Of a stretch of DNA of 64,000 nt, positions 11,044-64,000 are shown piece after piece. A program made the translations under genes and the position numbers. The stretch is from a virus: IMG/VR virus record IMGVR_UViG_3300034190_002878, positions 1-64,000 of that record; one strand, given 5' to 3'. Under the pieces are notes generated by a model. It ran no database searches. It saw nothing but the letters and a program-made list of their open reading frames with translations, and was not told the origin of the DNA. Within the stretch, counting starts at the first letter, position 1. Every line of letters begins with the position of its first letter.

Positions 11044-11051
11044 TAAATAGT
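11044..11051 (-). promoter_or_regulatory. Candidate phage late promoter (ACTATTTAT)
   Basis: Reads ACTATTTATCC in gene orientation. It lies at the stop codon of the Mre11-Rad50 fusion and 17 bases before the ATG of the 62-residue gene. From here the lysis-like cassette, terminase, portal and head genes could be transcribed as one late unit. Confidence 0.55.
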
Positions 11052-14149: not shown

Positions 14150-14176
14150 GTTTACCCCCACTTGAATTTATAATAT

Positions 14177-36500: not shown

Positions 36501-39500
36501 CAATTAATTTAGTAGTGTCTGCTGGATCAACTGTTGTTCTCCAGTAAGTATACTTTGTGTTTGGACCTGTTACCGGGTTGTGACCGGCAATCAAGTACCC
36601 ATTCCATGCACCAATTATTGATAGGCTGTTAAAGCCGACACCCATGAACAGTCGGTAGACTCTTGAGAATCTGTTGTTTGGATAGTAAGAACCAGTGTAA
36701 ATTGGAACGTTGTTTACTCCAACCTTTGTAACACCATCGGTGCCCTGAAGGGCTGCGAACTGTGGCACAGAGGCTGATATATAGGAATAACCTTTACGCT
36801 TGTAAATGTTTCGCTGCTCATCAATAATCGCAACTTGTGCGGCTGACCTGTCAACGGATGCTCTGTCAGAAGTTACAGATGCGCCTTGACGCTCAGCACG
36901 TTGTCTCCACCAGAGGCAGTGCTTATCTTCTGGCTGTGGGTGGACGACTTTAGTGCCCGTATTATTCATTGGGGCATGGCCAATCTTCCAATTGTAGAGG
37001 TGCTCCTCAATGCCCTTAATCTGTCCCTCAATGACAGTATTTGGCGTTCTAAGTGTTGGAAGAATATGACGATACTTATTTCTTGTAAGGGCTGTATCCT
37101 CGACCATGTTGCGAACATCGTCAGAGAATCTTGATGACGCTGGTACTAATTGTTGTAGCATCTCGCCCAAAGCAGTGTCTAGCCACTTGTAATAAGATAG
37201 ATATTTGTCTAGATCGGGCGTGTTCTCTACATTCTCATAGAAAATCTGCCTTAATTTAGACATATCCTTGTATTCATGACGATATCGGTTAACGGGCTCA
37301 CCAATTAGATTGTTAAACTCATTAATGCCAGCAAACATGTTGATCATTTCTTCTGAAATGGCCTGATACATGCTCTTTTCAAACGCGAAGAAATGACTAA
37401 TTGGTCTTGATTCTTTTGTAAATGTTAGGTCATCTTGTGTTCTGATGTCGATCATGTCATGGCTATTCATGACTTCTGGTAACCTGTAGCGAGCAGAGCT
37501 AATATAATTTGTATCCACGGCTGCTGTCGTGCTTGTCTTGAAGAAGTAACCGCGTGCGTTATATTGATTGTTAACAATTGGATCAATATCAGGATCGCGG
37601 AATCTGCGCTTCAACAATGAGCCTGAAGAAAAGTCCTGAAGTGTGAATTCGCCGGATGCGTCGGAGGCTGTTACGTTTGAAAAGTCCCAGTTAAATGCAA
37701 GCGTTTGAATCTCGGGTAGGTATGTTCCGGTTAGAGGATTTTCTAGCAGGTAAGTGCTACGCAACGGATTAAATGTACCATAGTTCTCTGTATCTCGTGC
37801 GTGAGCTTGGATAACATGATTGTCTAAGTACATTTGCCAATGCCTTAGGTAACCAACCTTAACGCTTGATTTTTCGTTGACAGTGCCGCCTGTAACGTTA
37901 GTTCTTCTAGCACCAACGTAATATCTTCTCGGGACTGTGATATCGGAATGAATCGCAGTACCACTTAGAGCAAATTCTTCTTGAATCCTGTCATAGGCTG
38001 TGTGAACACCATAGAGACTGACCTCGACACGGTTGGCGTTGGCTCCGCCGACGAAGTTAGTATTTGACATTCCGGTTGCGCCAAGTTCTGTTATTGTGAG
38101 CGTGGTGTTCCCAGATGCGCCGGCCTCTGCTTGTACTATACTTATTACGTTAGCAGTGTTGGTCGCACTAAATTTGGTGTGATGATTAATCGCTGTCCGA
38201 ATTTCAACCGCTTGCGCTGTAGCATGAAGAGTAGAACTAGCATAGCTTCCGGCCGACAAGGTTTTAGCAGTTAACGTTGTGCCGCTGGTCTCAGAGGACG
38301 TGGTAGAGCCACCCGTGCCTTGCATGGTGAGAGTCACTGTTGTCCCATCAGTCGAGATTAACTCGATAGTATCACCTTCTCCAATGAAAGGTACGCCCGG
38401 AGGAGAGCTAGAATCAATAACAGTAATTGTTGCCTTAGCTCTCACACCGATGGCGCCGGTTAAAAATGTTCCCATGCCATGCGACACTGCGGGGCTTGTT
38501 GGTGTAATAGAGGAAGTTAAAGCATTTCTGGTTCTAAGCGCAAAAACCCAACGATTATCTTCGTAGACATCCTTGAAAAGACTAGAAGTTGCAATTGTTA
38601 AATTATTACTTCTGTCTACGAGCTTAAAGAATGCATCTTTAGACTCTAAATCTGGGCGGATAGCCAAAACTTGATACCCTGATCCACCCGATGGCTTAAT
38701 AAAATCGTCGGGGTCGGCGTCGGCTTGGTCCCATCCAAAGATTGATGAGTCTGTAAATGACAGTTCAATAAATCCGGGGTCGCCCGGATCTTTTAGTCTT
38801 GGAAAGATTACTTCAGATTCAGCGGTTGTAGAGAAGTCTTTGTGTGAAGCTGAGATATATGTTACCCCAACAGCATCGGGATTTTTAATAGTTGATGTTG
38901 TGCTAGGTAGCACGTCATGTGTCACCACAGCGTCCTGATTGTCAGTCTGATAGAAATCAACAAAGTTTTTCTTTGCTGCTTTTGGCCTAAAGTTATCTCT
39001 AAGTAACTGAGTGGTGTTGTCTGCGTACAGATTAATTCTGATTAGTTCTTCATCAACACCGAATGATCGAATCAAGTTCTGGAATGATTTCTCGGTGCCC
39101 TTAGTCTTAAAGATGTGAACTAAATTATTATAGATGTTTTGATAAATTAAGTTTTTAACATTATGCAGATCGTCGCTGTACTCACGCTCAGTGTCACGGT
39201 TCATAACCGCCTCTAACACTTCAGCATTTGCAAAAATCTCTGAGTTTATGAATCCCTTAGATTCTAACAGTCTGTTAGCAAATGGCAGTGCCTTACCACT
39301 AGAAGTCTGGTAGGTTGGCACATGCAAATCTTTCATCGCCTCAATCTGCAAGAACAATGTGTCAAAGTAGTTGCCCACAATTTGAGTTAAGTTTTTGAGT
39401 TGGCCACCTGTCTCATCATCCTCTTCAATCATCCAAGATGGTAATGACTGGAAGATGGAAGAATTGTTTCTAACATCGTGAAAGCTGGAGGATGCGATTA

Positions 39501-45260: not shown

Positions 45261-48200
45261 TTAGTCTTGGTAATCATCATCTGGGTTGAAACACAAGTCT
45301 CCGTTCTTGTCATAAGGCCTGTCAACTCTCTTAGACCAGAGTCTAAGGCTAAATTTAGGCCAAGAAACTTTCAATTGATTCTTAGCATCTTCTTGAATTG
45401 TTGGATCAGAGAAGGCATCACTTGTATAACTAGGATCTTCCGAATTATAAAGGTCCATAAATGATTGTGCTGCGAGCTTCTTTGTTCTGTGGAATGCTTT
45501 AAACCACTGCCATTCTTTGAAATTTGTGGTAAATATATCAGCAAAGAAACTAAAAGGACCGAGGCCAGACAAGCCACTGTTTAAGCCACCACCGTAATAT
45601 TCGCCACTGAATAGTGCAGCCAATCCCTTTGGCTCATACCAACCGTCATCATTCTCTCCGTTATCGAAAGCTCGGGCCAAAGAACCAAGCATGATACCTT
45701 CGAAAGCTGGGTCAAAATCCTCTTCGTCGATGGCGGAAGTGTCAGGGGGATCACTTTCGCCTGCCTTTCCTATCGATGGCAAGAACCCTTGAATAATGTA
45801 AATTGCAATTGTTGATGTAATTCTTGGCATGTTAAAGCAGTATCTAAACAGCATCTTGTATTCATTACTGCATACTAGCTCCTGCACGAGTCTACCAAAC
45901 CCTCCTACTGAATCAAAGGATTCTGTCCAATCGGTGCTCAACGTATCAACGCCCATTGGCATCTGCAAGACTCCACGAGCCACCGGGATACTCATGGGGT
46001 TGTCTACAGCTTCTTCAGGAGTAGGAGTTGCGCCACTGTCTGTAAAATAGAAAGCCTTGTTTCTTTCGCTCGTCTCAGTGTTAAATGGGCGCGCACTTGT
46101 AGTTACGGTCTGTATAACATCAATTTTATCTTTAATTTGCACAGATTTTGGCAACCTAATATCAGTGCCGGGATTTGTAGCGTCAAATGTTGTGGTTCCA
46201 ATACCAAATGAATTAGTGAAAGAGGGGCCACTACGATTTGGAGGAATAAACACAATTCTTAGTCCATAGGACCAACCTCTCCACAAATCTGATCTTGTAA
46301 ACCCTGCATAAGAGGCAGCTTCCGAGTCTAGGTAGGCTTGCCACTCATCTGCCTTCACAACACCATATAAATTATCAGGCCTACTTTGTGTAGTGTTCCA
46401 CACCTCAGGAACTCCTTCAACGTCCAACGCGCCGAATCTTGTAAGATCAACCCCGTCGGCCACTAACTGAAGCCAATAATCCCTTGTATAGTCCTCGATT
46501 TGTATGTATTGTTCCAACACAAAGGGCCAATATCTATCACTCTTTGACACGATCCCGCTAGACACAGAATAAACGTCGTTGGAAACATCATACGCTTTCA
46601 CACTTTGGGGCTGTGGGCCTTGAAGTATTGAGTTTGAAGGGTCTGTGTACAACTTTAGGAACTCATTTTCATCAGTGCCGATTGGGGTAGATAACACCAT
46701 CGCTGCACTGTGTACAACAGAAAACACGCCGGGGCGACTAACCGTAATGTCACCGTCTCCCGTTGGGCTTGGTGTCGTTGTACTAATAAACGTTGCATCA
46801 TCTAGCGGAGTCACTTCGCCAATAACCCCGTTATTGAACGCAATAGAGCCATATGTACCAAAGGCACCACCCAAAAATACCTCGTATAGTGTTCGATGTT
46901 CTGGTGGTATTCTTTCGGCAAATTCATCGGAGATATATTTTAGCTCCTCAGCGATGTATCTCTTAAGAATTACCTCTGCCTGATCTTCGATCTCTCTCAT
47001 GAAGTAATCATAAGATTCTTCTTTGAGTTTCTTAGCGGCTCTCTTGCTTAGTGCGCCATCTTCAGAATTTAATGGCACATTGTAATTCTTATTGAAAATA
47101 TTCTTTAGTTGAGCGCCAAAGAAGCCGGGAGATAGAACTCTTTTCAATCTCTCGCCCGTTCCAGCATATGGTTTACCACTTGGTGGATTAGTATCTTTTT
47201 TCCAAATTTGTTGTAGCGCATTGATAACATCAATGGCTTGCTGCTCTTCTGTTGTGGGCTCAATCAGTCCAGCATCAATTTTTCTACCAAAGTTTTGTAC
47301 ACATTGCTCTAGGAATTGGAAATAATATTCATCAGTTTTTCTTCTACCAAATCCTTTCTTAGAATATTGGAAAAAGCCCCTCTTTAGTGTTTCAGTAATA
47401 TACGCAGAAAGCGAATCTTCGTACAATTCATTCAAATCTGCCTTAAATTTAACAAACGCAGGCATGCCTTTTAAGAAAGCTTCCGCAGCATAAATTCTAA
47501 TTGTGGCCTTGATGTTGCCCTCTATCATGGAAGCAGCGGCTCGACTAAGAATCTTATTGCATGGCTCCTCAATCGGGCAAGCAGATGGCGAGTCTAGGCG
47601 CGGATCATCATTTATCTTCTGGTAAAACTCTGTCGCGTAATCGCTAATTTCTTTAAATCCAATTACATTCTCACGCTTTGGATCGCATGCGTCTGCCTCT
47701 GGGATCATTTTATCGGCAATGCCAACCCAGCCGGGTCGATTTTGTGGTGGTCGATTGTAAAATGCTGGGAGATTGTTGTTGCCACCCCAAGCTAACGGGT
47801 CCAGTGGTAGCGGAGTGCCTGCTTGCGGGTGCTCAGGTGGATAAACGTGAGTTTCGTCAAGGAATATTTTTGTTTCAGGATATGTTTTGGGTGTATTACC
47901 AACAAAGTCATCTCCACCTTCGCCATACTTGAAAGCTTCATTATTAAATGCGATACTACCTGCTATGTAACTAAAAAATCCAGAGTTAATATAATCGTAC
48001 ATATCTGTCATACATGCATCCGCAATGAATGATAGAGAGTCCTCAGCAGTTGCAGTACCAAGTGCTTCTTCTGGTAAAGCATCACGAAGTATCTTTTCTA
48101 TATACTTTCCAAATACAGCCGACTGTGCTGAGATATTAGAGGCGGGTGTCGATGCGGTTCCAGACGCAAGGACTGTTTCAATATCCAAGCCTAACTCTGT

Positions 48201-51200
48201 TGTAATAAATTCTTCTACGCCAGACGGTAATCCGGGGTCCGCACTGATTGATAGTGTTTCAACAAAAGTGTCGCCTGTTTTTGGATCTTCAATTGTTCCA
48301 TCATCACGAATAGCAGGCTCTTTTGTATAATTGAATCGCTCTACAACCTCAAGTTCATATCGGTTGTTCAAAACAGTTGCTGTATTGTCCACGGCGGTCA
48401 GATTTATGTCGAACGCATACCAATCATCTTCGTTATCTGGAAAATAATTACTGTAACCTAAAATAACGTTTGGCTGTAAAGCAAAGCTAAATGGCCGTTT
48501 GTGGAACTTCGTTGAATTATTGTGTGCTGTATTCGGGTTCTTTAGAATATATTCTAAGTATTTGGCAACTGAAACTGGTAGAAGCTCCTCGCGACTATTT
48601 GGTCTGGTGCTAGAAATACCAAATATTGCCTTTGATGCAACATAACTATTGTGCTCTCTTCGCCCACGACCATCACGATCTGAAAGAACCATGTTCAAAA
48701 AGCCACCACGACCCATAAGATCTTTATAGTACATCTTATCATAGATGTCAAATGTGCCTTCAAATAGTCCGAATGGGCCAACTAGTAATCCAACAGGGCC
48801 TTGAGGCAAATCATCAGGTGACGGGTCTCTTGGTACGAGGCCGGGAATATTACAATCTGGCGTATCTAGTATTGGGGGCAGGTCTGCGAACAGGCCATTT
48901 TGAGAAATATTGACCAGCTCTTCTAAATCTGCTAGTGCCTGACACTTTAAAAATTCTAGTTGTTCGTCAATTAAATCTGGATTCAAGCCCCGATTGGCAA
49001 ATAATTGTCCTCTTAGATTATCCGCTTTCGCAGCGGAGGTGGCGTCTTGGCATACACCGGGAAACACTGGGACGCCTCGTTCTTCACCCAAACCAAGGGT
49101 CGCAAAGCTTGGGTCAATCATGTTGCCTAAATATCTAAAGAACTCTGGTATGGAGCCAACATTAGGGAATACGCAAAGGAACGCTGGGTGCCTCAAAACA
49201 GTCAATTGATAAATTGCTTTATGCACCTCTTCGGCTGCGACACCTGTCACCAAATCAACAAACTCACCCTGTGTCAAAATAAGGCCTACCTCATTTAAAA
49301 AGTCAGACACCTGTTCAGCGTTTGGCAGCTCTGATGCATCGGTGCATGATCTGCTGAATGTGGAAAATAAATTTGCTGCTGCATTGTTTAGCGTATCATC
49401 GTCAGCAATAGGAATTGGAATACCAAGATTATTTAGACCAGTTGAACTAAGGCTCTGTTTAATCGACTCAGCAAAGTTATTTGATGGTTGGCTCGCGAAC
49501 AATTCAGAGGCCAAGTCACCTAGCACGCCAAGCAAATTACAAAGCCCATTTAGTACAATTTTCAAAACAAGATTCAATATTGTAATAATAATCTTAATCG
49601 CCAATTGCATTAATACTTCTAAAAGTGCCTCCATGAACATCCTATAGAAATCAGGCACGTTAATCTTTTGAAGTTTTGGTAAAGTAATTGCATATTGGCC
49701 TCTACAGAAATCCAACTCTAGAGTCTTCATAAACTCGTTAAGCGGTGGATTGAATAGTGGAGCTGGAGGGCAGTCAGGGTTGATTAAAACCCTAGTGATC
49801 AACTCTGCACCGGGAAATTTGTTTATCTGCTCAAGCAAAAACTCTGCATCAACAGAATCTAAAATCGCCTCAATGTAGGCATCAAATATCGCGTCCAAAG
49901 AAGTATCAACAGCAGTGCCAATTGAGCCTGCACCGCCGCCAAAACGAGTCTGCGGCTGTGACTCCATTCTGTATTGAGTGGTTCGCTCGGCTATTGAACG
50001 ATTGTCTTCCTCTGCTGTGATTAAAACAAATCTCTTATTGCCATCCCCTACAGGCTTTTCATTATCAAAGTCTGGGTTTGGGGCATAAAAATCTTTACCT
50101 GTTGGTGTTCCGTCTGGGTTTACGTTTACTTCATAGTTGTAGCTACCCGGCTGATATCCTTGGTCCCATGGTGCCTCGATTGATCCTAAGGCCTCAAATA
50201 CTTTTTCCTTAACCTCAAGTTGCTTGTCAGGTGGTAGTCCAATAAAAAGTTTTTCTAAATTACCCGGATCCATTGCTTTTAACGCGGCTCTAACAATAAT
50301 CGACAAGGCCTCTTCTAGATCAATACCGTTAGTCAAACATTCAATTGCTACGCTCAATAAATCTAGAAGTCCACAAACTCCTAGCTTGTTTAAAATTTCG
50401 CTATAAAGTTCGTCTATATTTGCTACGGCTTGTAAAAGTTCAGGCAGCTTTAAGAAGGTATCATCACCAATGGTTATAATTTTACCTCTTGAGTAGATTG
50501 CTCGCTTGAGCATATCATCAAACTCTCTAATATCCGCATCATGTATTGCTTGCCCGTTACGATCTCGACACACTTGTTCCGAAAATTTAGATACAATGGC
50601 ATCTGGCAGGCTAACTATCTCGTCCACGATTGACTGAGCAGCCTGTTGAAGTGGACCGTCGGCTAATGCCGGGTCGCCCAGAGGGTCTTCCACGTCGTCT
50701 GTGCTAATTGGTGGATAAGTATATTCGGTAAAAAATTCATCCCATGCTTTTGGATCGCGGGCGGCAGCGTCATCGTGCATATCCTTCAGAGATGCGATAT
50801 AAGCCATTGTTCTAGGATCGTTAATTGGTTCTAGTTGTTTGAAGCCGCCTAAATTATCACCATCCTTTTTCCAGATTAATTCAACTGGCTCACACCCTCG
50901 TTCTTTGGCCTGAGCGAAGATAAGCTCATAGTTTTCATTAAATCTAAATTCTACTTTCTCTGCTGCATTCTTACCGTTTAATTTAAATCCATTACGGTTC
51001 ATTAGTTGCACTAATGCAGGAACAAACTTTTGTAGTTTTTGATTTTCAGCAGTTGGACTAAAGCCGGGGATTACTTGGCCGGTAGTGTAAGACCAAAGAG
51101 CGTATTTGTGTCCATAAAATCTAAATGCCTCACGAACACGCCTAATCATGCTTCTAATTTCTTCCGCTTTTAGGACACATCCAGTAGGCCCAATAGGAGG

Positions 51201-52343
51201 CTCCTCTGGGTCTGCATCAGTATCGATTATGGTGATAGCTTCAATTACATCAACAGGAACGCATACAAGCGCCTTTAAAGCGAGCAGTGGCCGAATGGGT
51301 ACATCGTACTGCTTTGTGATAGCTGCGCCCAATACAATAGCCGTAGAAGCTTCATCGAGCGGTGTTTTACCAAAGTATTCTAGAATTCTTTGAACGCCGA
51401 CCTCTTTCTGTTCCTCTAAAAACGCCTCTCTAGTTGCCGTATCATTTAGGACCGTAATATCTGTTTCGTCTGTAAAAATCGTGACACAGTATTCGCAAGT
51501 TCTCTGATTTAAAAACACATCCCCATCATTATTGTTCCTCCAATCAGGAACATAAGCATCTGGATCTTCGATACACGGTGGACACTCTGGAATTGCAGGG
51601 GGTGGTGCTGGTTGTGGTTCACATGGACCGAGGGCTTGCCCTCCTTCCACTAAGGCATCGAATTCATCTTCGGGTATGCCATAAGATGCCTCGGGTGGGT
51701 CGCCTGAATCTGGACCTTCGTCTTCACTAGGTGGACCGGACGCACTAGACAGCCCGCCTAGATCTTCTAACTCAGCAAATAATTCAAGAATAAGCGCACG
51801 AGTTAACCACACAACACCCTTTGCATCATCACCAGTTGACATGGTGAAGCCATCAGGCATTCTATTATGATCGAGCCACTGAACAGCATCCCTAAGGAAG
51901 ATTGCATTTGTTGTCTCGTCCATCTGGAAAACGTCCGGTGCTGGTCTGCTCCAGCCTAGCGACCTTGAGCGTTCACCATAATCTAACAAATCTGCACCGC
52001 CCGGTAAAGATCCAAAATATGTTCCATCATCATAAAAAACAGCGAACTCAGTATCAGGAATTCCAGAAGGTGTAGCAGTGTAAGCTGGACTAAAAGGCGA
52101 TGTTGTTTCAAAGTAAGGAGGAATAACGTCCTGAAATTTGTAAAATGGACTGTATGCCCCTAAGTAACCTGCTGGACCACCAAAAGATACCTCTGCAATG
52201 GCTTGGACAATAGCGAGAGTCTTTTCGTAAATCTCATCAAAGATTTCTTGCCGACGGAGTTCTCCAATGGTTGGAGGAGGGGATGTAGTTGTAGACGGTG
52301 ATGTTGGTGGCCCGACGGGTCCACCTGTAGGTGCTGTAGCCAT
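45261..52343 (-). CDS. Giant baseplate/tail protein (2360 aa)
   Basis: The 2360-residue protein begins with a Pro/Ser/Thr-rich disordered stretch (residues 1-25), then a helical segment (ELRRQEIFDEIYEKTLAIVQ). The central part has a strongly hydrophobic helical stretch near residues 895-945 (LMQLAIKIIITILNLVLKIV), of the kind seen in tape-measure or membrane-interacting tail proteins. Several Cys-rich clusters occur (CEPQPAPPPAIPECPPC near residue 235). The C-terminal part is mixed. It lies between the spike-like gene and the gp25-like gene. A combined tape-measure or baseplate hub role is possible. No family assigned. Confidence 0.65.
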   Translation of the reverse strand: MATAPTGGPVGPPTSPSTTTSPPPTIGELRRQEIFDEIYEKTLAIVQAIAEVSFGGPAGYLGAYSPFYKFQDVIPPYFETTSPFSPAYTATPSGIPDTEFAVFYDDGTYFGSLPGGADLLDYGERSRSLGWSRPAPDVFQMDETTNAIFLRDAVQWLDHNRMPDGFTMSTGDDAKGVVWLTRALILELFAELEDLGGLSSASGPPSEDEGPDSGDPPEASYGIPEDEFDALVEGGQALGPCEPQPAPPPAIPECPPCIEDPDAYVPDWRNNNDGDVFLNQRTCEYCVTIFTDETDITVLNDTATREAFLEEQKEVGVQRILEYFGKTPLDEASTAIVLGAAITKQYDVPIRPLLALKALVCVPVDVIEAITIIDTDADPEEPPIGPTGCVLKAEEIRSMIRRVREAFRFYGHKYALWSYTTGQVIPGFSPTAENQKLQKFVPALVQLMNRNGFKLNGKNAAEKVEFRFNENYELIFAQAKERGCEPVELIWKKDGDNLGGFKQLEPINDPRTMAYIASLKDMHDDAAARDPKAWDEFFTEYTYPPISTDDVEDPLGDPALADGPLQQAAQSIVDEIVSLPDAIVSKFSEQVCRDRNGQAIHDADIREFDDMLKRAIYSRGKIITIGDDTFLKLPELLQAVANIDELYSEILNKLGVCGLLDLLSVAIECLTNGIDLEEALSIIVRAALKAMDPGNLEKLFIGLPPDKQLEVKEKVFEALGSIEAPWDQGYQPGSYNYEVNVNPDGTPTGKDFYAPNPDFDNEKPVGDGNKRFVLITAEEDNRSIAERTTQYRMESQPQTRFGGGAGSIGTAVDTSLDAIFDAYIEAILDSVDAEFLLEQINKFPGAELITRVLINPDCPPAPLFNPPLNEFMKTLELDFCRGQYAITLPKLQKINVPDFYRMFMEALLEVLMQLAIKIIITILNLVLKIVLNGLCNLLGVLGDLASELFASQPSNNFAESIKQSLSSTGLNNLGIPIPIADDDTLNNAAANLFSTFSRSCTDASELPNAEQVSDFLNEVGLILTQGEFVDLVTGVAAEEVHKAIYQLTVLRHPAFLCVFPNVGSIPEFFRYLGNMIDPSFATLGLGEERGVPVFPGVCQDATSAAKADNLRGQLFANRGLNPDLIDEQLEFLKCQALADLEELVNISQNGLFADLPPILDTPDCNIPGLVPRDPSPDDLPQGPVGLLVGPFGLFEGTFDIYDKMYYKDLMGRGGFLNMVLSDRDGRGRREHNSYVASKAIFGISSTRPNSREELLPVSVAKYLEYILKNPNTAHNNSTKFHKRPFSFALQPNVILGYSNYFPDNEDDWYAFDINLTAVDNTATVLNNRYELEVVERFNYTKEPAIRDDGTIEDPKTGDTFVETLSISADPGLPSGVEEFITTELGLDIETVLASGTASTPASNISAQSAVFGKYIEKILRDALPEEALGTATAEDSLSFIADACMTDMYDYINSGFFSYIAGSIAFNNEAFKYGEGGDDFVGNTPKTYPETKIFLDETHVYPPEHPQAGTPLPLDPLAWGGNNNLPAFYNRPPQNRPGWVGIADKMIPEADACDPKRENVIGFKEISDYATEFYQKINDDPRLDSPSACPIEEPCNKILSRAAASMIEGNIKATIRIYAAEAFLKGMPAFVKFKADLNELYEDSLSAYITETLKRGFFQYSKKGFGRRKTDEYYFQFLEQCVQNFGRKIDAGLIEPTTEEQQAIDVINALQQIWKKDTNPPSGKPYAGTGERLKRVLSPGFFGAQLKNIFNKNYNVPLNSEDGALSKRAAKKLKEESYDYFMREIEDQAEVILKRYIAEELKYISDEFAERIPPEHRTLYEVFLGGAFGTYGSIAFNNGVIGEVTPLDDATFISTTTPSPTGDGDITVSRPGVFSVVHSAAMVLSTPIGTDENEFLKLYTDPSNSILQGPQPQSVKAYDVSNDVYSVSSGIVSKSDRYWPFVLEQYIQIEDYTRDYWLQLVADGVDLTRFGALDVEGVPEVWNTTQSRPDNLYGVVKADEWQAYLDSEAASYAGFTRSDLWRGWSYGLRIVFIPPNRSGPSFTNSFGIGTTTFDATNPGTDIRLPKSVQIKDKIDVIQTVTTSARPFNTETSERNKAFYFTDSGATPTPEEAVDNPMSIPVARGVLQMPMGVDTLSTDWTESFDSVGGFGRLVQELVCSNEYKMLFRYCFNMPRITSTIAIYIIQGFLPSIGKAGESDPPDTSAIDEEDFDPAFEGIMLGSLARAFDNGENDDGWYEPKGLAALFSGEYYGGGLNSGLSGLGPFSFFADIFTTNFKEWQWFKAFHRTKKLAAQSFMDLYNSEDPSYTSDAFSDPTIQEDAKNQLKVSWPKFSLRLWSKRVDRPYDKNGDLCFNPDDDYQD

Positions 52344-56584: not shown

Positions 56585-57448
56585 TTATACTACCTCCTTA
56601 ATAATTGCTCTACCGAGCAGGTTTTCCCAATCTCTTTCAGGGCGGACATTTAAGTTTGTTTCCCAAGCTCCGCTTAACACGTTTGCTTCAATACCCAATT
56701 GTCTTGCATATGTCATCATAGCTTGTATATCTTTCGGGAAACAACTGCCTCCAAATCCATATCTTCCATCTGGTCCCGGCACTTGTAAGTGAGAGTGTCC
56801 GATTCTCCCATCTCTTACGAATCCATCGACTGCTGTTTGCCAGTCAACCCCGCTACTATCAGCAATTAAACGCATCTCATTCATAAAAGACACCTTTGTT
56901 GCAAAGTAACAGTTATTCATGTATTTAATAAACTCAGCCGTTTCAAAGTTGGTTTCAATTGTTGGCGTAGAAGAGCCAAACCTAATACGGAAAAGATCTG
57001 CCACTTTTCCAGTGTGCTCTGGTTCTCCACCCAGAATAAACCTAGCCTGATTGATAAAATCAAATTTAGCAGACCTTTCTGTCAAGAACTCTGGATTGAA
57101 TACAAATGTTAAATTTGTATACTTCTCGGCAAATGTTCTAGTTGTTCCGGGCACGACTGTTGAGCGAATCAATACGACACAATCCTCTTTTGTACCCTTT
57201 GCACTAATTTCTTCAACCACCTCGTCTAAGATTGATAAATTGATCGAACCATTAACGTTTGATGGGGTTGGAACAGACAAGAAGATGTAATCAGAGTGCT
57301 CAAGAACATCATCTAACGAGTGAGTGCATCGAGCCGGGTCTTTATCATACACCCTGAGTACGGCACCATCAAACCCTGTCTGTGGTGAGAAGCCATAGGC
57401 TACTGATGATCCAACAAAACCGAAGCCAATAATTCCAATGTTAATCAT
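56585..57448 (-). CDS. Short UDP-sugar/GDP-mannose 6-dehydrogenase family protein
   Basis: NAD-dependent enzyme family that oxidises a nucleotide-sugar C6 alcohol to a uronic acid. The 287-residue product has the Rossmann motif GIIGFGFVG (residues 5-13), the FNPEFLTE segment (117-124), the central helix with FIKYMNNCYFATK (Lys175) and the catalytic Cys in GFGGSCFPKD (Cys236). It lacks most of the C-terminal nucleotide-binding domain normally present in 390-450-residue enzymes; it ends soon after the active Cys. It may work on a smaller substrate or be a truncated yet functional enzyme. Overlaps the epimerase gene by 4 bases. Confidence 0.82.
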   Translation of the reverse strand: MINIGIIGFGFVGSSVAYGFSPQTGFDGAVLRVYDKDPARCTHSLDDVLEHSDYIFLSVPTPSNVNGSINLSILDEVVEEISAKGTKEDCVVLIRSTVVPGTTRTFAEKYTNLTFVFNPEFLTERSAKFDFINQARFILGGEPEHTGKVADLFRIRFGSSTPTIETNFETAEFIKYMNNCYFATKVSFMNEMRLIADSSGVDWQTAVDGFVRDGRIGHSHLQVPGPDGRYGFGGSCFPKDIQAMMTYARQLGIEANVLSGAWETNLNVRPERDWENLLGRAIIKEVV

Positions 57449-58311
57449 GCTGCCCTCTCTCGTTCAGCCTTTAGAAGCTCAAAGCATCTAGAGATGCCAG
57501 ATTTAATTTGAACCTTAGGCTCCCAACCAAGATCTTTTAGAGGCTGCATATTAGCCTTTGTTACTAAAACATCACCAGCACGATCTTCAACGTAATCAAA
57601 CTTGACCTCTGGGAAGTGGGTGTTAACGATATCTTTCATTTCATTTAATGAAATATTATCTCCTGTCCCGACATCAAAATGTTTTCCTCCAAAAGATCCC
57701 TCATATTCCATTGCAAAAATATTAGCTGATACAACATCCGTTTTATGAGCCATATCACGTCGCTGCTCACCATTTCCTGTGATGAAGGGGTTTTTGCCCT
57801 CGCGAATGAACCGCATCCAATTTGCAACCGCCGTGGCATATGGGCTATCTGCTTTTTGATCAGGGCTATAGACGTTAAAGTATCGAAGAGAAACTGTGTC
57901 AATGCCATATAGATCTGAGTACAATTTTGTTTCTAACTCTGATGTGAGCTTTTGCAATGCGTATGGACTAGCGGGGCCGTCTCCATTGCCGACGACAGAT
58001 GATGATCCAGAATAAATTACTCGCTTGACATTCTTTCTTTTTGCAAAGTCTAAAACGATGCTAGTTGATAGAACATTGTTCATCATCGTGTGAACCGGCT
58101 GTTCGACGCTGTACACCACGCGAGGGATACAAGCTAAGTGAAAGATGTAATCAAAGTCATACTTTTCTAGACTTTCAAGACCCTCAAGAATATCAAATTG
58201 TGGTCCATCTTTTAAATCAATGCCGACCACATCGTGTCCTAGACCGACCAATCGACCATATAGGTCTTGGCCAATATACCCTTTTTGTCCTGTTACTAAA
58301 CATAAAGCCAT
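57445..58311 (-). CDS. NAD-dependent sugar epimerase/dehydratase (extended SDR)
   Basis: Modifies nucleotide sugars. The 288-residue product has the N-terminal TGQKGYIG dinucleotide motif (residues 7-14), an SGSSSVVG segment (102-109) and the catalytic Tyr117-x-x-x-Lys121 (SPYALQKL). The C-terminal part holds DMAHKTDVVSAN and a substrate domain typical of UDP-glucose 4-epimerase-like enzymes. Exact substrate cannot be told. GGAG precedes ATG 58311. It pairs with the dehydrogenase downstream, a common arrangement in surface-polysaccharide clusters. Confidence 0.85.
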   Translation of the reverse strand: MALCLVTGQKGYIGQDLYGRLVGLGHDVVGIDLKDGPQFDILEGLESLEKYDFDYIFHLACIPRVVYSVEQPVHTMMNNVLSTSIVLDFAKRKNVKRVIYSGSSSVVGNGDGPASPYALQKLTSELETKLYSDLYGIDTVSLRYFNVYSPDQKADSPYATAVANWMRFIREGKNPFITGNGEQRRDMAHKTDVVSANIFAMEYEGSFGGKHFDVGTGDNISLNEMKDIVNTHFPEVKFDYVEDRAGDVLVTKANMQPLKDLGWEPKVQIKSGISRCFELLKAERERAA

Positions 58312-58986
58312 TTATTTTTCTCCTTTTAGCATGTCGTCATAGTTTTGAACTTGACTAATATTGTTTGTTCTATTTGAATCGTGAATCCTGTATTTGTATA
58401 AAGGCATTGGTAAATTGTATACCTTGTACTTTTCTTTGAATCTACGGATCATTTCATGTCCCTCTCTCATCTTGTATTCTTCGTCATAAAATCCGACATC
58501 ACACAAGGATTCATAGGTAAACATGATGCCACAGGCAACAAATTCTTTTTCTGCGCTGTGGCGGCTGATCAACTGTCCTGTGTTGTCAACCTTAAAATAA
58601 TCACACGCTACCGCTTGACAATTCATACCAGAACCCATAATTCTTGGGCCTGAGTTCATGTCAAGGAAATTCGATAGCGTGTAAAGAAAATGCTTAGAGA
58701 CGTAATCGTCCGAATCTACGCGAACAAAATACTGTCCCAAGCTGTTATGTAAAATTTTATTTAGAGACGCTGGGAGTCCCAGATTCTCTTCGTTATTAAT
58801 TAAGCGAATGTTTAAGTAGTCTGCGAATGTGTTACAGATATCTTCAAGATTTTCTTCGGGATCATCATTAACTAAAATGACCTCGAACTTATCCTTCCCG
58901 ATTGTTTGGTTTACCAGACTCCTTAGACATCGATGCAACCATCTCTTTTGTTTGTAGCAACTAATTCCTACCGTGATTTTGTGCAT
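58312..58986 (-). CDS. Family 2 glycosyltransferase
   Basis: A GT-A enzyme that transfers a sugar from a nucleotide donor. The 224-residue product has the GT2 start (KITVGISCYKQKRWLHRCL), the VILVNDDPEENLEDI segment and the metal-binding VDSDDYVS motif (about residues 93-100). There is no membrane segment. It overlaps the dehydrogenase gene by 19 bases. The acceptor is unknown; the neighbouring genes suggest a surface glycan. Confidence 0.85.
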   Translation of the reverse strand: MHKITVGISCYKQKRWLHRCLRSLVNQTIGKDKFEVILVNDDPEENLEDICNTFADYLNIRLINNEENLGLPASLNKILHNSLGQYFVRVDSDDYVSKHFLYTLSNFLDMNSGPRIMGSGMNCQAVACDYFKVDNTGQLISRHSAEKEFVACGIMFTYESLCDVGFYDEEYKMREGHEMIRRFKEKYKVYNLPMPLYKYRIHDSNRTNNISQVQNYDDMLKGEK

Positions 58987-59873
58987 AGCTCTAATATTCC
59001 CCTAAGAGCCTTTGTTTGGCTCTCTATCGTTGCCCCCGCAACGTGAGGCGTAATCACTATGTTGTCTCTTTTTAAATTAAACAAAGAGGATTTTGATAAT
59101 GTGTTGATATCTTGCTCGTTGCAGAGAACATCGCAAGAGTAAAAGATCTTATCATTGACAACAAGGTCGTAGATGTAGTCCTCATTAACGACCTCGCCCC
59201 TAGATGTATTGACAACAATTAAGCCATCTTTAAATCCATCTAAGACACCTTTATCTATAAACCCTCTAGTTTCCTCTGTAAGGTAACAACTTATACATAG
59301 TATATCAACATTTTGCATGTTTGTCAAGGAAAAAGTTCTATTATATTGATAACTGCTCACATAAGGGTCGTAATATACTATCTTCATGCCAAAAGCAGTA
59401 GCATACTTTGCAATTTTACGACCGATTCGACCAAGGCCTACAATACCAATTGTTTTCCCAGCTAACTCATTTGAACGTAAGAATTTTTCATTATGGTCAT
59501 CTCTCCAGTGCTGTACACGCTCCACAGCAGGAATAAACTTTCTAAAAGCATTCATAATATGAAGCCATGTAAACTCTGCTGACGCATGAATGTTTTCTAG
59601 AACGCCTCTATTGTCTAGCAAACATTTTACACTTACACCTCGTCCCCTAAGGTATGCAGTATCTAAGTGATTTACACCAGTCGATGGCGTGCCCACTATC
59701 TTAAGATTTGGGTACTTTGCAAAATACTGTTCTCCTAAAAATACATCTGTGCCCGGATTCACAATTATACACTCCGGGTCTTCTCTATCTACTACGATGC
59801 CGTAGTCATCTAATAACACATTAAGATCTTGCACCTGTAAAAAATTAACAGGACATTCAATTCTTGTTCGCAT
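58968..59873 (-). CDS. D-isomer-specific 2-hydroxyacid dehydrogenase
   Basis: The start at ATG 59873 has GAGGAG upstream; a TTG 12 bases earlier does not. The 301-residue product has the NAD-binding motif GIVGLGRIGRKIA (about residues 143-155), the catalytic Arg in VNTSRGEV (Arg225) and His in TPHVAGAT (His277). Members convert 2-keto acids to 2-hydroxy acids; in glycan clusters they accompany NeuA/NeuB-type genes, with a role not clearly known. A strong sigma70-like promoter (59299-59327) lies inside this gene. Confidence 0.85.
   Translation of the reverse strand: MRTRIECPVNFLQVQDLNVLLDDYGIVVDREDPECIIVNPGTDVFLGEQYFAKYPNLKIVGTPSTGVNHLDTAYLRGRGVSVKCLLDNRGVLENIHASAEFTWLHIMNAFRKFIPAVERVQHWRDDHNEKFLRSNELAGKTIGIVGLGRIGRKIAKYATAFGMKIVYYDPYVSSYQYNRTFSLTNMQNVDILCISCYLTEETRGFIDKGVLDGFKDGLIVVNTSRGEVVNEDYIYDLVVNDKIFYSCDVLCNEQDINTLSKSSLFNLKRDNIVITPHVAGATIESQTKALRGILELCTKSR
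59299..59327 (-). promoter_or_regulatory. Strong sigma70-like promoter inside the dehydrogenase gene
   Basis: Minus strand TTGACA, 17-base spacer, TATACT (11 of 12 consensus bases). It would transcribe the GT2, epimerase, 6-dehydrogenase and sigma genes. Since it lies in coding sequence, a chance match remains possible. Confidence 0.45.
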
Positions 59874-60567
59874 GACGCTCCTCAAGTAAAATCTCAGCTA
59901 ATCTAAAATCCATAAGAGTGTCAATATTTACTGAGCACTCTTCTGGCATTAGAAAAGGGCGACAATCTTTGCCGTGCCTTGAGAACCAATCCACGATACA
60001 TTCTCTTGTCATCGCGAAGATAGCGCCGTTCCTAATGTAACATGGTTCCAAGTCCTGTCTCCGAGAGCCTTCGCCCTCTGGGAACTCTGTTGTAAAATCT
60101 TTTATTTGATCTTCTACGATGCGTTTCATTCTTACAGGATGCTTGTCTTGAACAGAGGTCAAAGACGTTACACTGTCCGCACCAGTCTCAATTAGTTTAT
60201 TAACTGCTTCAACAATGTGCTCAGAAGTCCTCAGAGGGGCCACACAAGGAAGCTCGACAACATAATCATATGTTACCCCGTAATGCTCCTCGGACGCCAA
60301 TACGGCATGCTTGAGAGCGTCTCTAGACCATACATGATCTTGAGCTAATTCGTCTGGTCTCATAAAAGGCACTGAGGCACCATGCGACTCTGCGATGCTA
60401 GCAATTTCTGCACAATCTGTACTGACCACAACATGATCAAAAACGTTGCTCGCTAGAGCAGCTTCAATAGTCCAAGCGATCAATGGCTTGCCATGAATCA
60501 TTTTGATATTTTTTCTTGGCACCCCTTTCGAGCCGCCTCTAGCTAAAATTACTGCTATCTTATTCAT
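59857..60567 (-). CDS. neuA-like: CMP-nonulosonic (sialic-type) acid synthetase, NeuA-like
   Basis: Activates a sialic-type acid with CTP to give the CMP-sugar donor. The 236-residue product has the nucleotide-binding N-terminus ILARGGSKGVPRKNI (residues 7-21), the VVVSTDCAEIASIAE segment, a YVVELPCVAPLRT region and a C-terminal NIDTLMDFRLAE motif like the family's conserved D-x-D ending. It overlaps the GT29-like gene by one base. Together with NeuB and two sialyltransferases it forms an activation and transfer set. CMP-KDO synthetase is a less likely alternative. Confidence 0.88.
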   Translation of the reverse strand: MNKIAVILARGGSKGVPRKNIKMIHGKPLIAWTIEAALASNVFDHVVVSTDCAEIASIAESHGASVPFMRPDELAQDHVWSRDALKHAVLASEEHYGVTYDYVVELPCVAPLRTSEHIVEAVNKLIETGADSVTSLTSVQDKHPVRMKRIVEDQIKDFTTEFPEGEGSRRQDLEPCYIRNGAIFAMTRECIVDWFSRHGKDCRPFLMPEECSVNIDTLMDFRLAEILLEERHANKN

Positions 60568-61403
60568 TATAAATCCCTTACTAAATTGTTGATATCATCA
60601 CTTAAAGTTTTCATTAAAGATATGTATAGTTGTTTTCTTGTGGCTGGGTCTGTGGGGATATCCGACACGCGATATGAGTTCAGTATTTTTGTTAACACGT
60701 TGTCTGTTTCTATTCTCTTGCCAAATGCATCAAGATACTCTATTGTATCTAATAAGATTAGTGTTTCTAATAGACCGTTATGCTTTTCTACAATTGCTTT
60801 ATTGTGACTAGGCGGCTTGTTTTTCTGTAGCATGTGGCCCCCACCATGGTACATTGTAAGTCCAGTAATATAGACATGTTTAGCGTCCGAAGCTATCGAC
60901 TCCATAACTGCGTTGAATCCAAGTTGTGGCCATATACTATACTTTGATTTAGAGTTTATACTAGCCAACTTATTGTCTGTCCAGCCATTTTCCGTGGCAT
61001 AATCTTTTAGAATAAAAGCGTATTGCTCAGAAGAGTAAGAGGAAGCACATATGTCGTGATACATTTTTGAATTTAGACCAACACCTAGTTCGCAGACTGG
61101 ATGCCTCGTGAAATTGATATTTGTTCTTGATAAAAAATCATAGTCGGTTTTGCTGTTTATTACAGAACTGTACATGACATTTGTTTTGTTACCTATATGT
61201 TCAGCAAATTGATTTTGCTCTTTTCTAGGCAACCACTTAAGTCGGATAACAACATCACAGTCATCAATTTTGCGACCATTATTTTCTAACAAAATATGTT
61301 TGGAAGGGCCAACAATTGCTACGCTCTTACCAGCTAAAAAGTTATTATACTCAGGCTCTGGTTTTACAGATTGTAAAAACTTTGATAGCCTTTTTTCATT
61401 CAC
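60567..61403 (-). CDS. GT29-like sialyltransferase
   Basis: The 278-residue product contains an L-sialylmotif-like stretch (SVAIVGPSKHILLENNGRKI, followed by DDCDVVIRLKW; residues 27-57) and an S-motif-like stretch (PQLGFNAVMESIASDAKHVY, then ITGLTMYHGG; about 159-188). A later His200 and a H-x4-E pattern (His208 to Glu213) recall motif VS. GT29 is best known from animals. The GTG start at 61403 overlaps the NeuB stop as GTGA. Donor would be CMP-sugar from the neighbouring NeuA-like enzyme. Assignment is by motif; acceptor unknown. Confidence 0.7.
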   Translation of the reverse strand: MNEKRLSKFLQSVKPEPEYNNFLAGKSVAIVGPSKHILLENNGRKIDDCDVVIRLKWLPRKEQNQFAEHIGNKTNVMYSSVINSKTDYDFLSRTNINFTRHPVCELGVGLNSKMYHDICASSYSSEQYAFILKDYATENGWTDNKLASINSKSKYSIWPQLGFNAVMESIASDAKHVYITGLTMYHGGGHMLQKNKPPSHNKAIVEKHNGLLETLILLDTIEYLDAFGKRIETDNVLTKILNSYRVSDIPTDPATRKQLYISLMKTLSDDINNLVRDL

Positions 61404-62086
61404 GAAACGACCCTGTTAATGTTATCAAACTGTTGTCCAAATTCTTTCATAAGCCTTAGTTCGCTCACATCCATGGAGCCAATGTGATCATTGCCATCCA
61501 TACCCTTGTTGAGTGTAAAGTGCTTCTCTACTACTTTTGCTCCATGGGCGATGTTGTATAGAGCATACGCTGGGCCGTATGAGTGATCACTAAAGCCGAC
61601 AACCTTGTCATCATACGCAAACTTTTCAAAGTCTAGAAAGCTTGTTGGGTATCTTGAAATACAATTGAAGTATTTCACATTATCGTAATCAAATGGCAGG
61701 AAGTCGTGCTCCCACATTCCAAGCGAAACATACACAGGCTTTCCGATATCAATAATCTTCTCACATAATTCAGGTTCTTTGACAACGGTTCTGCTTGCAA
61801 TCTTGTAAAGACTTACGTCTAGCTTTTCACACCATTCAATTTTTTCCTCGTCAAAAACAGAAGCAAAGAACTCAATGCCATGTGCATCACATATATCTCT
61901 GATTTCTCTGACTTGGTTAAATGTAAATTCGTTACGCTTACGAGATTCATCTCCAAAAACTCTTACTGAATCGTAAAGCTGAAACTTTGCATAATCTGCT
62001 CCACCAATTGCTGACTGCCTAATCAGCTCTTCAATTTTTCGGAAGTCACCATTGTGATTAATTCCGATCTCTGAAATGATTTTCAC
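61400..62086 (-). CDS. neuB-like: Nonulosonic acid synthase, short NeuB-like
   Basis: Condenses phosphoenolpyruvate with a hexosamine to make a sialic-type acid. The 228-residue TIM-barrel product has SEIGINHNGD (Glu6, His11), DYAKFQLYD (Lys34), LYKIASR (about 93-99), GFSDHSYGP (His168) and VVEKHFTLNK (186-195). It lacks the C-terminal SAF (antifreeze-like) domain of normal NeuB proteins (about 340 residues), so it is a minimal barrel-only form. GTG start overlaps the previous stop; GGAG lies 9 bases upstream. No NeuC-type epimerase is in the window. Confidence 0.85.
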   Translation of the reverse strand: MKIISEIGINHNGDFRKIEELIRQSAIGGADYAKFQLYDSVRVFGDESRKRNEFTFNQVREIRDICDAHGIEFFASVFDEEKIEWCEKLDVSLYKIASRTVVKEPELCEKIIDIGKPVYVSLGMWEHDFLPFDYDNVKYFNCISRYPTSFLDFEKFAYDDKVVGFSDHSYGPAYALYNIAHGAKVVEKHFTLNKGMDGNDHIGSMDVSELRLMKEFGQQFDNINRVVS

Positions 62087-62754
62087 TTAATTATCTCCAA
62101 ATTTTGCACTTCTGGTAGTTGTGCATTAGTAATCATCTTAAAATTAACATCTGGGTTGCGCTTCACCACATCAATAAAGTGCTCAACCATATTTGTTCTG
62201 TCCATTTTAGCCTTTTGTTGCTTTAGCGGGGCCTGCCATGGACGGCGAAACAGGTAATCATTTTGATAGAAATCAAGGCCAATTACCCACAAATTCTTAG
62301 GTTTTAGTATGTGAGCAGCATAAATAATTGCCAAAACTCCTGTATTTGGGTGCTTTTTAGCGTAATTACCTACACCCTGAAAGAAATCATTATAACCCAG
62401 CAGCTCCTCTGGTAGGAGATGACACTTCAGCCCGTAGCTTTCATATATTCTTCTCATTCTTGAAATCATAGCATCATATTCGCACTTAGTAAATTGAATA
62501 TTAGTGATGCCCAGCTCTCTATAGTGATCTGGTAGCAGGGGCGCGGTATCTAGTCTATTCACAAAGTGGGCGATGTTCTTGCCCTTCAGTGCCGGTGCTA
62601 CTATAGAATACTCAGAATCTTCATTGTTTACATTCCTGTCAAAGTTGTTGACCATGTAACAATGATCAAACCTGTCTGACACTTGGTCTATTCTAGCAAC
62701 ACTTGCGCCCTTGAGGACAACCCCAAAGTCATTTAAGTCTTTTGGAAAGTACAT
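62083..62754 (-). CDS. GT42-like sialyltransferase (Cst-type)
   Basis: I chose ATG 62754, which overlaps the methyltransferase stop as TGATG and has GAGGG upstream. The 223-residue product resembles Campylobacter CstI/CstII: the N-terminal phrase KGASVARIDQVSDRFDHCYM corresponds to the CMP-binding start, and TGVLAIIYAAHILKPKNLWV then IGLDFYQNDY (about residues 138-167) match the TSGVYM...SGIDFYQN region. It is shorter than CstII (about 290 residues). Donor is presumably the CMP-sugar from the adjacent NeuA-like enzyme. Assignment by motif. Confidence 0.75.
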   Translation of the reverse strand: MYFPKDLNDFGVVLKGASVARIDQVSDRFDHCYMVNNFDRNVNNEDSEYSIVAPALKGKNIAHFVNRLDTAPLLPDHYRELGITNIQFTKCEYDAMISRMRRIYESYGLKCHLLPEELLGYNDFFQGVGNYAKKHPNTGVLAIIYAAHILKPKNLWVIGLDFYQNDYLFRRPWQAPLKQQKAKMDRTNMVEHFIDVVKRNPDVNFKMITNAQLPEVQNLEIIK

Positions 62755-63599
62755 CAATCCCTCGTGATCATAAAACTGCGAACAATCTTTCGACTTCCAG
62801 AATCGAAGTGCTCATGACAAGCGAATTTTGCAAGATGTTCGTTACTAACATTGTTGTACAGGCCACGGTGGAAACCATCTGTTTGGATCGTCTTAACTGG
62901 ATCGTATCCTGCCATCTTGAACAATTGTGGCTGAGGCACTGGGGTAGCGATAACCCATTTGCTGTTGAATCCGATCTTGAAATACTCACGAAGAATCTTT
63001 TCGAAATCATTATCACTGTCGTAGGTGTTCGGGTGGACTTCAAGAAGGATATTGGTGTGCCCTTCGTTCTTAGTAAAATAATCAAGACCGCCTTCAAAAA
63101 TCTTGACCTCGTGCCCCTCGACATCCATCTTAATAAAATTAGGGTATCGACGATCTTGTAGGAAAGTGTTTAGCGAGAAGCAAGGAACCTCTTTCTTTGT
63201 TGTGCTGTACTTGTTCTTCTTTACGCTACTTAAATTTGGCTTTGATGCTTCCCAGAATACCTCAACACCATCGTGTCCCGAGATGGCACACTGTGTGACC
63301 TCACAACGGTCGCTGTAGCCATTGTCTTGAACATTCTTAGTCAGGATATCAATGCTTTGGGAGTCGGGCTCTACGGCGTATACAAAGCCTTCTGAGCCTA
63401 CGTTCCGTAACATAGGCAATGTGGTATAACCAATATTGCCACCAAGGTCGAGGCAAGTCATGCCATCTTTAACGGTATCGTTTAGTAGAGACATAAAAGC
63501 CTTCTCTCTGCCGCCTTCGTAGTATAGGACGCTAGAGATGCCTCCGTCGCTAATGTTCAGGTTCATATTGAACCCGTCAACCTGTTTTTGTACTAGCAT
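62754..63599 (-). CDS. FkbM-family methyltransferase
   Basis: SAM-dependent enzyme, usually O-methylating sugars. The 281-residue product has motif I CLDLGGNIGYTTLP (residues 49-62), the acidic VEPDSQSI (about 76-83) and FIKMDVEGHEVKIFEGG (about 154-170), all typical of FkbM. It overlaps the upstream glycosyltransferase by 23 bases and the sialyltransferase by one. Likely modifies a sugar of the same glycan. Confidence 0.88.
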   Translation of the reverse strand: MLVQKQVDGFNMNLNISDGGISSVLYYEGGREKAFMSLLNDTVKDGMTCLDLGGNIGYTTLPMLRNVGSEGFVYAVEPDSQSIDILTKNVQDNGYSDRCEVTQCAISGHDGVEVFWEASKPNLSSVKKNKYSTTKKEVPCFSLNTFLQDRRYPNFIKMDVEGHEVKIFEGGLDYFTKNEGHTNILLEVHPNTYDSDNDFEKILREYFKIGFNSKWVIATPVPQPQLFKMAGYDPVKTIQTDGFHRGLYNNVSNEHLAKFACHEHFDSGSRKIVRSFMITRD

Positions 63600-64000
63600 T
63601 TAATGTCTCCTTTAAAAATTGCTCGTATCTTTCCGACACGTCAACCATATCAATATTAGTATTATAACCGTTTGAAATAACTTTGTCAAATGAAATTTCA
63701 GGCAAATTCGTTGTGCTTGCTGGACTATAGTCCCATGGCTCTTCGTGAATAACGATTGCATCAGGGCCTGCCACTTCTTTGGTGCCAGCGATGGATGAAC
63801 AAATAATTTGACATCCTGCGGCACGGGCGTCAACAACCACATTTGGGCAAGAGTCGAATCGTGCCAAGTGAATCATATACTTGGACCTTTTGTATAGCGA
63901 GTATAGGCTGTTTGTATTGATATCGCCAACAAAAAAGATTCTGTCATGTATGATTGCCTCGCTAGCGTCCACATGGCCAGCAATAACCAAACAATCTTTA
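63577..64000 (-). CDS. Family 4-like glycosyltransferase, C-terminal part (cut by window edge)
   Basis: The frame is open to the right end, so only the last 140 residues are seen. Residues RIFFVGDINTNSLYSLYKRS, then ARFDSCPNVVVDARAAGCQI and CSSIAGTKEV are the donor-binding half of a GT-B enzyme of the GT4 type. The Glu-x7-Glu motif appears altered (Asp in place of the first Glu). It is the first gene of the sugar island in this window. Confidence 0.78.
   Translation of the reverse strand, partial: KDCLVIAGHVDASEAIIHDRIFFVGDINTNSLYSLYKRSKYMIHLARFDSCPNVVVDARAAGCQIICSSIAGTKEVAGPDAIVIHEEPWDYSPASTTNLPEISFDKVISNGYNTNIDMVDVSERYEQFLKETLNASTKTG

What the first reader, a model, noticed from the sequence alone, without database searches (positions are those of the whole stretch)
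59857..62754. Phage-encoded sialic-type acid synthesis, activation and transfer set
Four consecutive overlapping genes encode a NeuB-like synthase, a NeuA-like CMP-transferase and two sialyltransferase-like proteins. A phage carrying its own sialylation route could decorate host lipopolysaccharide (superinfection block or host disguise) or its own virion. Precursor-making genes (NeuC type) are not in the window and may lie to the right or be supplied by the host.
Basis: partly seen in the sequence, partly recalled or inferred. Interest (0 to 1): 0.7.

Follow-up and report, generated by a model that had tools for sequence, protein, structure and literature searches.

The report
Phage operon for a sialic-acid-like sugar
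A marine virus of bacteria carries genes that probably make, activate and attach an acidic sugar of the sialic-acid kind, using an uncharacterised version of the route that includes an extra dehydrogenase and leans on its host for the starting sugar.

Summary
The four genes are real, intact and overlapping at 59857-62754 (minus strand) of a T4-like marine phage contig. They encode a NeuA-type CMP-transferase, a GT29-type sialyltransferase, a NeuB that lacks the usual C-terminal SAF domain, and a second sialyltransferase-like protein. No sequence library names the last one, but its predicted fold matches GT42/GT29 enzymes (Z 11.8).

They are four of ten consecutive genes, and the key partner was missed: a 2-hydroxyacid dehydrogenase (HADH, 58968-59873) next to neuA. 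Searching viruses with HADH alone, all 20 close homologues sit directly behind a cytidylyltransferase gene, 19 with a neuB upstream. In five bacterial genomes NeuA and HADH are one fused protein followed by a GT2; two of these also carry a compact NeuB.

No NeuC lies to the right: the contig ends 628 bases on, and related records of 172 and 185 kb show none. NeuB and NeuA miss the curated cut-offs for Neu5Ac, pseudaminic acid and KDO enzymes. The sugar is unknown; Neu5Ac is unlikely.

Best reading: the core of an uncharacterised bacterial CMP-ulosonic-acid pathway, used with host precursors to build an acidic glycan, more likely on host surface than virion. New variant of a known kind.

The parts
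61400..62086 (-). Compact NeuB-like synthase, 228 aa, TIM-barrel domain only, no SAF domain; core motifs SEIGINH, KFQ, KIASRT, SDH, EKHFT, GND
   Evidence: PF03102 E 1.3e-36; motif positions; profile alignment to 6ncs, 8h2c, 1vli, 1xuu; clade and KxASR signature
59857..60567 (-). NeuA/PseF-like CMP-ulosonate cytidylyltransferase, 236 aa (RGGSKGVPRKN, RRQDL, NID motifs)
   Evidence: PF02348 E 6.3e-23; TIGR03584 PseF 162.8 bits, below cut-off; PDB 6ifd CMP-Neu5Ac synthetase E 5.5e-34
58968..59873 (-).
   Evidence: PF02826 E 2.2e-38; motifs; 20/20 close viral homologues directly 3' of a cytidylyltransferase gene; fused to NeuA in five bacterial genomes
60567..61403 (-). GT29-type sialyltransferase-like protein, 278 aa, with L-like region (VAIVGPS...DVVIR), S-like region (WPQLG...GLTMYH) and VS motif HNGLLE (H-x4-E)
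   Evidence: PF00777 27.3 bits, cut-off 23; motifs invariant in 4 viral homologues; low-confidence model whose 16 best PDB matches are all GT29/GT42 sialyltransferases, Z 6.1-7.8
62083..62754 (-). Second sialyltransferase-like protein (ST2), 223 aa, GT42/GT29 fold
   Evidence: model pLDDT 84.6; VIA-align Z 11.8, 4.2 A over 184 residues, to Cst-I 2p56; homologues next to neuB/neuA in otherwise different viral loci L157 and L182
62754..63599 (-). FkbM-family methyltransferase, 281 aa
   Evidence: PF05050 E 2.3e-16
63577..63999 (-). C-terminal part of a GT4-type glycosyltransferase (308 aa in the full record, ends about record base 64503)
   Evidence: PF00534 E 5.6e-8; record extension
58312..58986 (-). 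GT2 glycosyltransferase, 224 aa; a GT2 also follows NeuA-HADH in bacteria
   Evidence: PF00535 E 2.3e-22; synteny
57445..58311 (-). NAD-dependent nucleotide-sugar epimerase/dehydratase (SDR), 288 aa
   Evidence: PF01370 E 8.9e-40
56585..57448 (-). Short UDP-glucose dehydrogenase, 287 aa, catalytic GFGGSCFPK present, only N-terminal and central domains matched
   Evidence: PF00984, PF03721; motif

Best explanation
The operon encodes the core of a CMP-ulosonic-acid (sialic-acid-like) pathway plus transferases. NeuB condenses PEP with an aldose supplied by the host to give a 3-deoxy-2-ulosonic acid. A 2-hydroxyacid dehydrogenase does a pathway-specific redox step whose substrate is unknown. NeuA activates the sugar with CTP. 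A GT29-type and a GT42-type transferase move it onto an acceptor, alongside GT2/GT4 transferases, a methyltransferase and enzymes for UDP-hexuronic acid. The result would be a short acidic glycan. Most likely it alters the host surface polysaccharide during infection (for example to block superinfection); decoration of the virion is the main alternative destination. Shown by sequence: enzyme classes, intact motifs, operon structure, conserved linkage and natural NeuA-HADH fusion. Inferred: reaction order, that precursors come from the host, destination and benefit. Not known: the sugar.
For: Families and motifs. Transferase folds. Ten overlapping genes. In viruses the NeuB-NeuA-HADH-GT2 order is conserved. 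NeuB is swapped for distant NeuBs (24-31% identity) in four loci while NeuA-HADH stays. In five of 398 sampled Pseudomonadota genomes NeuA (55-57%) and HADH (35-39%) form one 590-629 aa protein followed by GT2. Two of these clusters also hold a compact NeuB (37-38%, KIASRTV), one of them close to an ABC exporter gene with a Wzt domain. DUF4910 accompanies neuB in both a phage and a bacterial cluster.
Against: No activity is known. Partial pathways are common in polysaccharide islands and NeuB-family members may act on other aldoses. Neither NeuB nor NeuA reaches any curated equivalog cut-off. GT29 and ST2 are not present in all relatives, so they are not obligate partners. No exporter, polymerase or ligase was recognised in the operon, so delivery to the surface is inference. 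The catalytic base of GT42 is not clearly placed in ST2.
Confidence: 0.62

Rival explanations
1. The glycan is put on the phage's own structural proteins (virion decoration) rather than on host lipopolysaccharide. (Not exclusive of the biochemical part of the best explanation.)
For: No exporter, polymerase or ligase family appeared in the operon; the operon is near the late sigma factor, endolysin and giant proteins of the phage.
Against: The homologous bacterial module lies near an ABC exporter gene with a Wzt C-terminal domain, a surface polysaccharide setting; no glycosylation-site evidence was available.
Confidence: 0.3
2. The product is a KDO-type or other non-sialic ulosonic acid made from a common host sugar.
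For: No NeuC over cut-off in nine related records, a DegT aminotransferase in one of twelve, no SIS isomerase above cut-off, so an N-acylated nine-carbon sugar would need its whole precursor route from the host; NeuA has weak hits to KdsB models.
Against: The synthase matches PF03102 only, not the KDO/DAHP synthase family; KdsB scores 26.2 bits against a cut-off of 155.2, while PseF scores 162.8; the closest solved relative of NeuA is a CMP-Neu5Ac synthetase.
Confidence: 0.2
3. It makes ordinary Neu5Ac from host ManNAc, as in textbook sialylation.
For: NeuB_NnaB is the best NCBIfam match of the synthase (E 8e-39); two sialyltransferase-type proteins are encoded.
Against: 133.5 bits against a cut-off of 399.65, no SAF domain, KIASRT where 1xuu has KIGSGE, and a linked HADH that this route does not need.
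Confidence: 0.1
4. ST2 is not a glycosyltransferase but a non-catalytic or different enzyme with the same Rossmann-like fold (compare SteA).
For: No sequence-family match; SteA 9hmz scores Z 9.8; the GT42 catalytic histidine is not aligned unambiguously.
Against: Nine GT42 entries score Z 10.7-11.8 and GT29 entries 8.0-8.9; an extended viral profile aligns collinearly with CstII (82.9% probability); homologues are recurrent neighbours of neuB/neuA.
Confidence: 0.15

Closest known systems
Bacterial nonulosonic acid pathways (NeuB/NeuA; PseI/PseF; LegI/LegF)
   Same: PEP-condensing NeuB family synthase plus CMP-ulosonate cytidylyltransferase, then transferases
   Different: No precursor genes found in the phage records, no SAF domain, below all curated equivalog cut-offs, and an extra HADH in fixed linkage
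SAF-less NeuB with a solved structure (PDB 6ncs, 290 aa)
   Same: NeuB barrel without SAF domain; best solved match to the family profile (E 2e-28)
   Different: Phage enzyme is shorter (228 aa) with a KxASR signature
GT29 sialyltransferases (animal type)
   Same: PF00777 match above cut-off, H-x4-E motif VS, model ranks GT29 first
   Different: Phage protein is 278 aa and only about 68 residues are covered by the Pfam match
GT42 sialyltransferases (Cst-I/Cst-II)
   Same: Fold of ST2; GLDFYQ versus GIDFYQ motif
   Different: No PF06002 match; catalytic histidine unclear
Phage O-antigen conversion and cyanophage LPS-gene islands
   Same: Phage-encoded glycan modification genes
   Different: Known serotype-converting sets use GtrA/GtrB/Gtr with host nucleotide sugars, not an own CMP-ulosonate branch (own knowledge)

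Membership tests
NeuB family (PF03102) | Curated Pfam score reached over the barrel | tested here: met
   126.7 bits, cut-off 22.1
N-acetylneuraminate synthase NeuB_NnaB (TIGR03569) | Equivalog cut-off 399.65 bits | tested here: not met
   133.5 bits
N-acetylneuraminate synthase NeuB_NnaB (TIGR03569) | C-terminal SAF (antifreeze-like) domain | tested here: not met
   ORF ends about 42 residues after the start of EKHFT; match ends at profile position 249 of 329
Pseudaminic acid cytidylyltransferase PseF (TIGR03584) | Equivalog cut-off 205.7 bits | tested here: not met
   162.8 bits
CMP-ulosonate cytidylyltransferases (PF02348) | Curated Pfam score | tested here: met
   82.2 bits, cut-off 22.6
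KDO cytidylyltransferase KdsB (TIGR00466) | Equivalog cut-off 155.2 bits | tested here: not met
   26.2 bits
GT29 (PF00777) | Curated Pfam score | tested here: met
   27.3 bits, cut-off 23
GT29 (PF00777) | Sialylmotif VS H-x4-E | tested here: met
   H208NGLLE213, invariant H and E in four homologues
GT42 (CST-I, PF06002) | Sequence-family match | tested here: not met
   no PF06002 match for ST2 at E<=1
GT42 (CST-I, PF06002) | GT42 fold | tested here: met
   Z 10.7-11.8 to nine Cst-I/Cst-II/Pasteurella entries
GT42 (CST-I, PF06002) | Catalytic His188 equivalent | tested here: inconclusive
   H193 or K184 depending on alignment; viral homologue L157 keeps GHS
Complete de novo sialic acid pathway | UDP-GlcNAc 2-epimerase NeuC (PF02350) | tested here: not met
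   no match over cut-off in nine related virus records, two of them 172 and 185 kb; the window record ends at 64628 with only the rest of GT4. The records may still be fragments.
Sialyltransferases | Transfer of a CMP-ulosonic acid | not testable with these tools
   needs enzyme assay

The most novel reading that the evidence does not exclude
Compact NeuB, NeuA and HADH (the last two fused in some bacteria) define an undescribed CMP-ulosonic-acid pathway that makes a chemically new acidic sugar, and a group of marine T4-like phages has captured it as a swappable cassette with its own GT29- and GT42-type transferases.
Probability: 0.4. Interest if true: 0.75.

Novelty: new variant of a known kind. 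Interest (0 to 1): 0.52.

Why it matters
Phages are known to change host surface sugars, but a phage bringing its own synthesis, activation and transfer of a sialic-type acid was not found in the papers searched here; a bulk survey only lists neuA among marine viral genes (PMC10653327). The fixed NeuA-HADH link, with a natural fusion in bacteria, points to an uncharacterised redox step in ulosonic-acid biosynthesis that can be tested with small soluble enzymes. If the sugar ends on the host surface it would give a concrete marker for infected cells and a candidate superinfection barrier in the ocean.

Tried and rejected
NeuC to the right: rejected; the record has only 628 more bases and nine related records have none over cut-off. 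Virus-only origin of compact NeuB: first suggested by the tree (21 viral rows and one Omnitrophota row, SH-aLRT 100) but weakened when bacterial fusion clusters turned out to hold compact NeuBs at 37-38%. Foldseek alone gave no significant hit for ST2; only the VIA-align second look ranked the sialyltransferases, and an HMM search of PDB with the ST2 profile gave only chance hits. Loss of the Glu next to the catalytic lysine motif as a unique mark of this clade: rejected, most SAF-less NeuBs in the sample lack it too. PF06002 in 20 genomes or records rang nowhere, not even in controls, so it says nothing. T4-type late promoter TATAAATA: four in the window against 3.1 expected, none in the operon. 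Sigma-70 sites at chance level. Named phage records: no match to GT29 or ST2; NeuB and NeuA matches of 25-38% only, in three records, one titled as the bacterium Moritella viscosa. Literature: no paper describing this module in the held library.

Full report
What is there. The finding lies in a 64628-base virus record. The contig is a T4-like myovirus: its terminase is 45% identical to Flavobacterium phage immuto, and it has a portal protein, a late sigma factor and an endolysin. On the minus strand, ten genes follow one another with overlaps of at most about 20 bases: GT4, FkbM methyltransferase, ST2, NeuB, GT29, NeuA, HADH, GT2, epimerase, UDP-glucose dehydrogenase.

Enzyme classes. NeuB is PF03102 (E 1e-36) and ends about 42 residues after the start of the EKHFT motif, so it has no SAF domain. 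The profile of twelve viral NeuBs aligns along the barrel with 6ncs, 8h2c, 1vli and 1xuu, keeping the EIG-NH, KxQ, KxxS, SDH and E-K/R-HFT motifs; by general knowledge of NeuB these carry PEP and metal binding. NeuA is PF02348 and closest to PseF and CMP-Neu5Ac synthetases, well away from KdsB. The 278-aa protein passes the PF00777 cut-off and has an H-x4-E motif. Its model is poor (pLDDT 57), yet its 16 best structural neighbours are all GT29 or GT42 sialyltransferases. ST2 has no sequence family. Its model is good (84.6), and GT42 enzymes lead at Z 10.7-11.8, ahead of GT29 at 8.0-8.9; of the other folds only SteA, at 9.8, scores above 6.3. An extended viral ST2 profile aligns collinearly with CstII at 82.9% probability.

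The missed partner. The gene after neuA is a D-2-hydroxyacid dehydrogenase with an intact NAD motif and Arg-Glu-His set. In viruses related through NeuB, NeuB-NeuA-HADH-GT2 recurs. To avoid circularity I searched with HADH alone. All 20 close homologues (46-76%) lie directly behind a cytidylyltransferase gene; in one (L202, the locus of L006) it is a NeuB-CTP_transf_3 fusion that has replaced NeuA. A neuB lies upstream in 19; the twentieth is cut by the contig end. A few of the 20 are near-copies. In four loci NeuB belongs to a different branch (24-31%), so the constant element is NeuA-HADH. Of the 25 distant viral hits, 12 still have neuA or neuB within 5 kb. By contrast only one of 80 cellular NeuB loci had an HADH nearby.

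Bacterial counterpart. A search with the NeuA alignment in 398 Pseudomonadota genomes found five with NeuA and HADH in one 590-629 aa protein, followed by a GT2. Others have NeuA, HADH and NeuB as neighbours (L258, L263, L309, L310, L312). Two fusion clusters also hold a 228-247 aa NeuB with the KIASRTV signature whose best matches are the phage enzymes and the Omnitrophota enzyme. An ABC exporter gene with a Wzt domain lies about 4 kb from the fusion in one (L305), and a permease-like gene, by my own reading, sits next to it in another (L244). A DUF4910 gene is near neuB in one bacterial cluster and next to it in phage L017. The phage module therefore mirrors a bacterial surface-polysaccharide pathway that I could not find described.

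Which sugar. NeuB and NeuA fail every curated equivalog cut-off. NeuC is absent from nine related records, an aminotransferase appears in one of twelve, and no SIS isomerase is over cut-off. These records may be fragments, but two are 172 and 185 kb. So precursors are probably from the host, or the aldose is a common host sugar. Neu5Ac is unlikely; a KDN-like, KDO-like or new ulosonic acid is open. What HADH does is not known: it may change the sugar or its precursor, or make an acyl substituent.

Role of the transferases. GT29 was found in seven related records and ST2 in eight or more loci, but neither is obligate: several relatives keep NeuB-NeuA-HADH-GT2 without them. Relatives put other genes in the same slots, such as a sulfotransferase-like gene. 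The operon position beside the late sigma factor is conserved in the nearest relatives, so the region behaves as a cassette whose contents vary.

Destination. No exporter, polymerase or ligase was recognised in the operon. Host-surface modification is favoured by the bacterial context and by established knowledge of phage serotype conversion; virion decoration is a fair rival. No data here decide between them.

Verdict. Membership in the NeuB, cytidylyltransferase and GT29 families is met at family level; membership in Neu5Ac, Pse or KDO equivalogs is not. It is a new variant of a known kind, with a testable unknown at its centre.

Noticed in passing
window 11051-14161 (-): One 1036-aa ORF matches SbcD-like (residues 5-366) and SbcC-like (304-1034) families, as if T4 gp47 and gp46 were fused.
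   Followed up: no
window 30577-40968 and 45261-52343 (-): Very long ORFs of 3463 and 2360 aa; the second has no PHROG match.
   Followed up: no
L006:8684-10456: A 590-aa protein with a second NeuB domain and a CTP_transf_3 domain takes the place of NeuA directly behind compact NeuB.
   Followed up: partly
L007:4473-8004: Upstream of neuB: an NTP-transferase/HAD-like/APH-like multidomain protein and a transaldolase-type aldolase, possible precursor or modification genes.
   Followed up: no
L003:6362-7312 and L004:484-1449: A sulfotransferase-like gene (PF13469, tested in the copy on the L003 contig) between ST2 and neuB in the two nearest relatives; absent from the window.
   Followed up: partly
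L017:6665-7951: DUF4910/M28-like gene directly before neuB in phage, also near compact neuB in bacterial locus L305.
   Followed up: partly
L171:3868-4620: Another viral GT29-like gene (27%) next to neuA and near neuB in an otherwise different locus.
   Followed up: no
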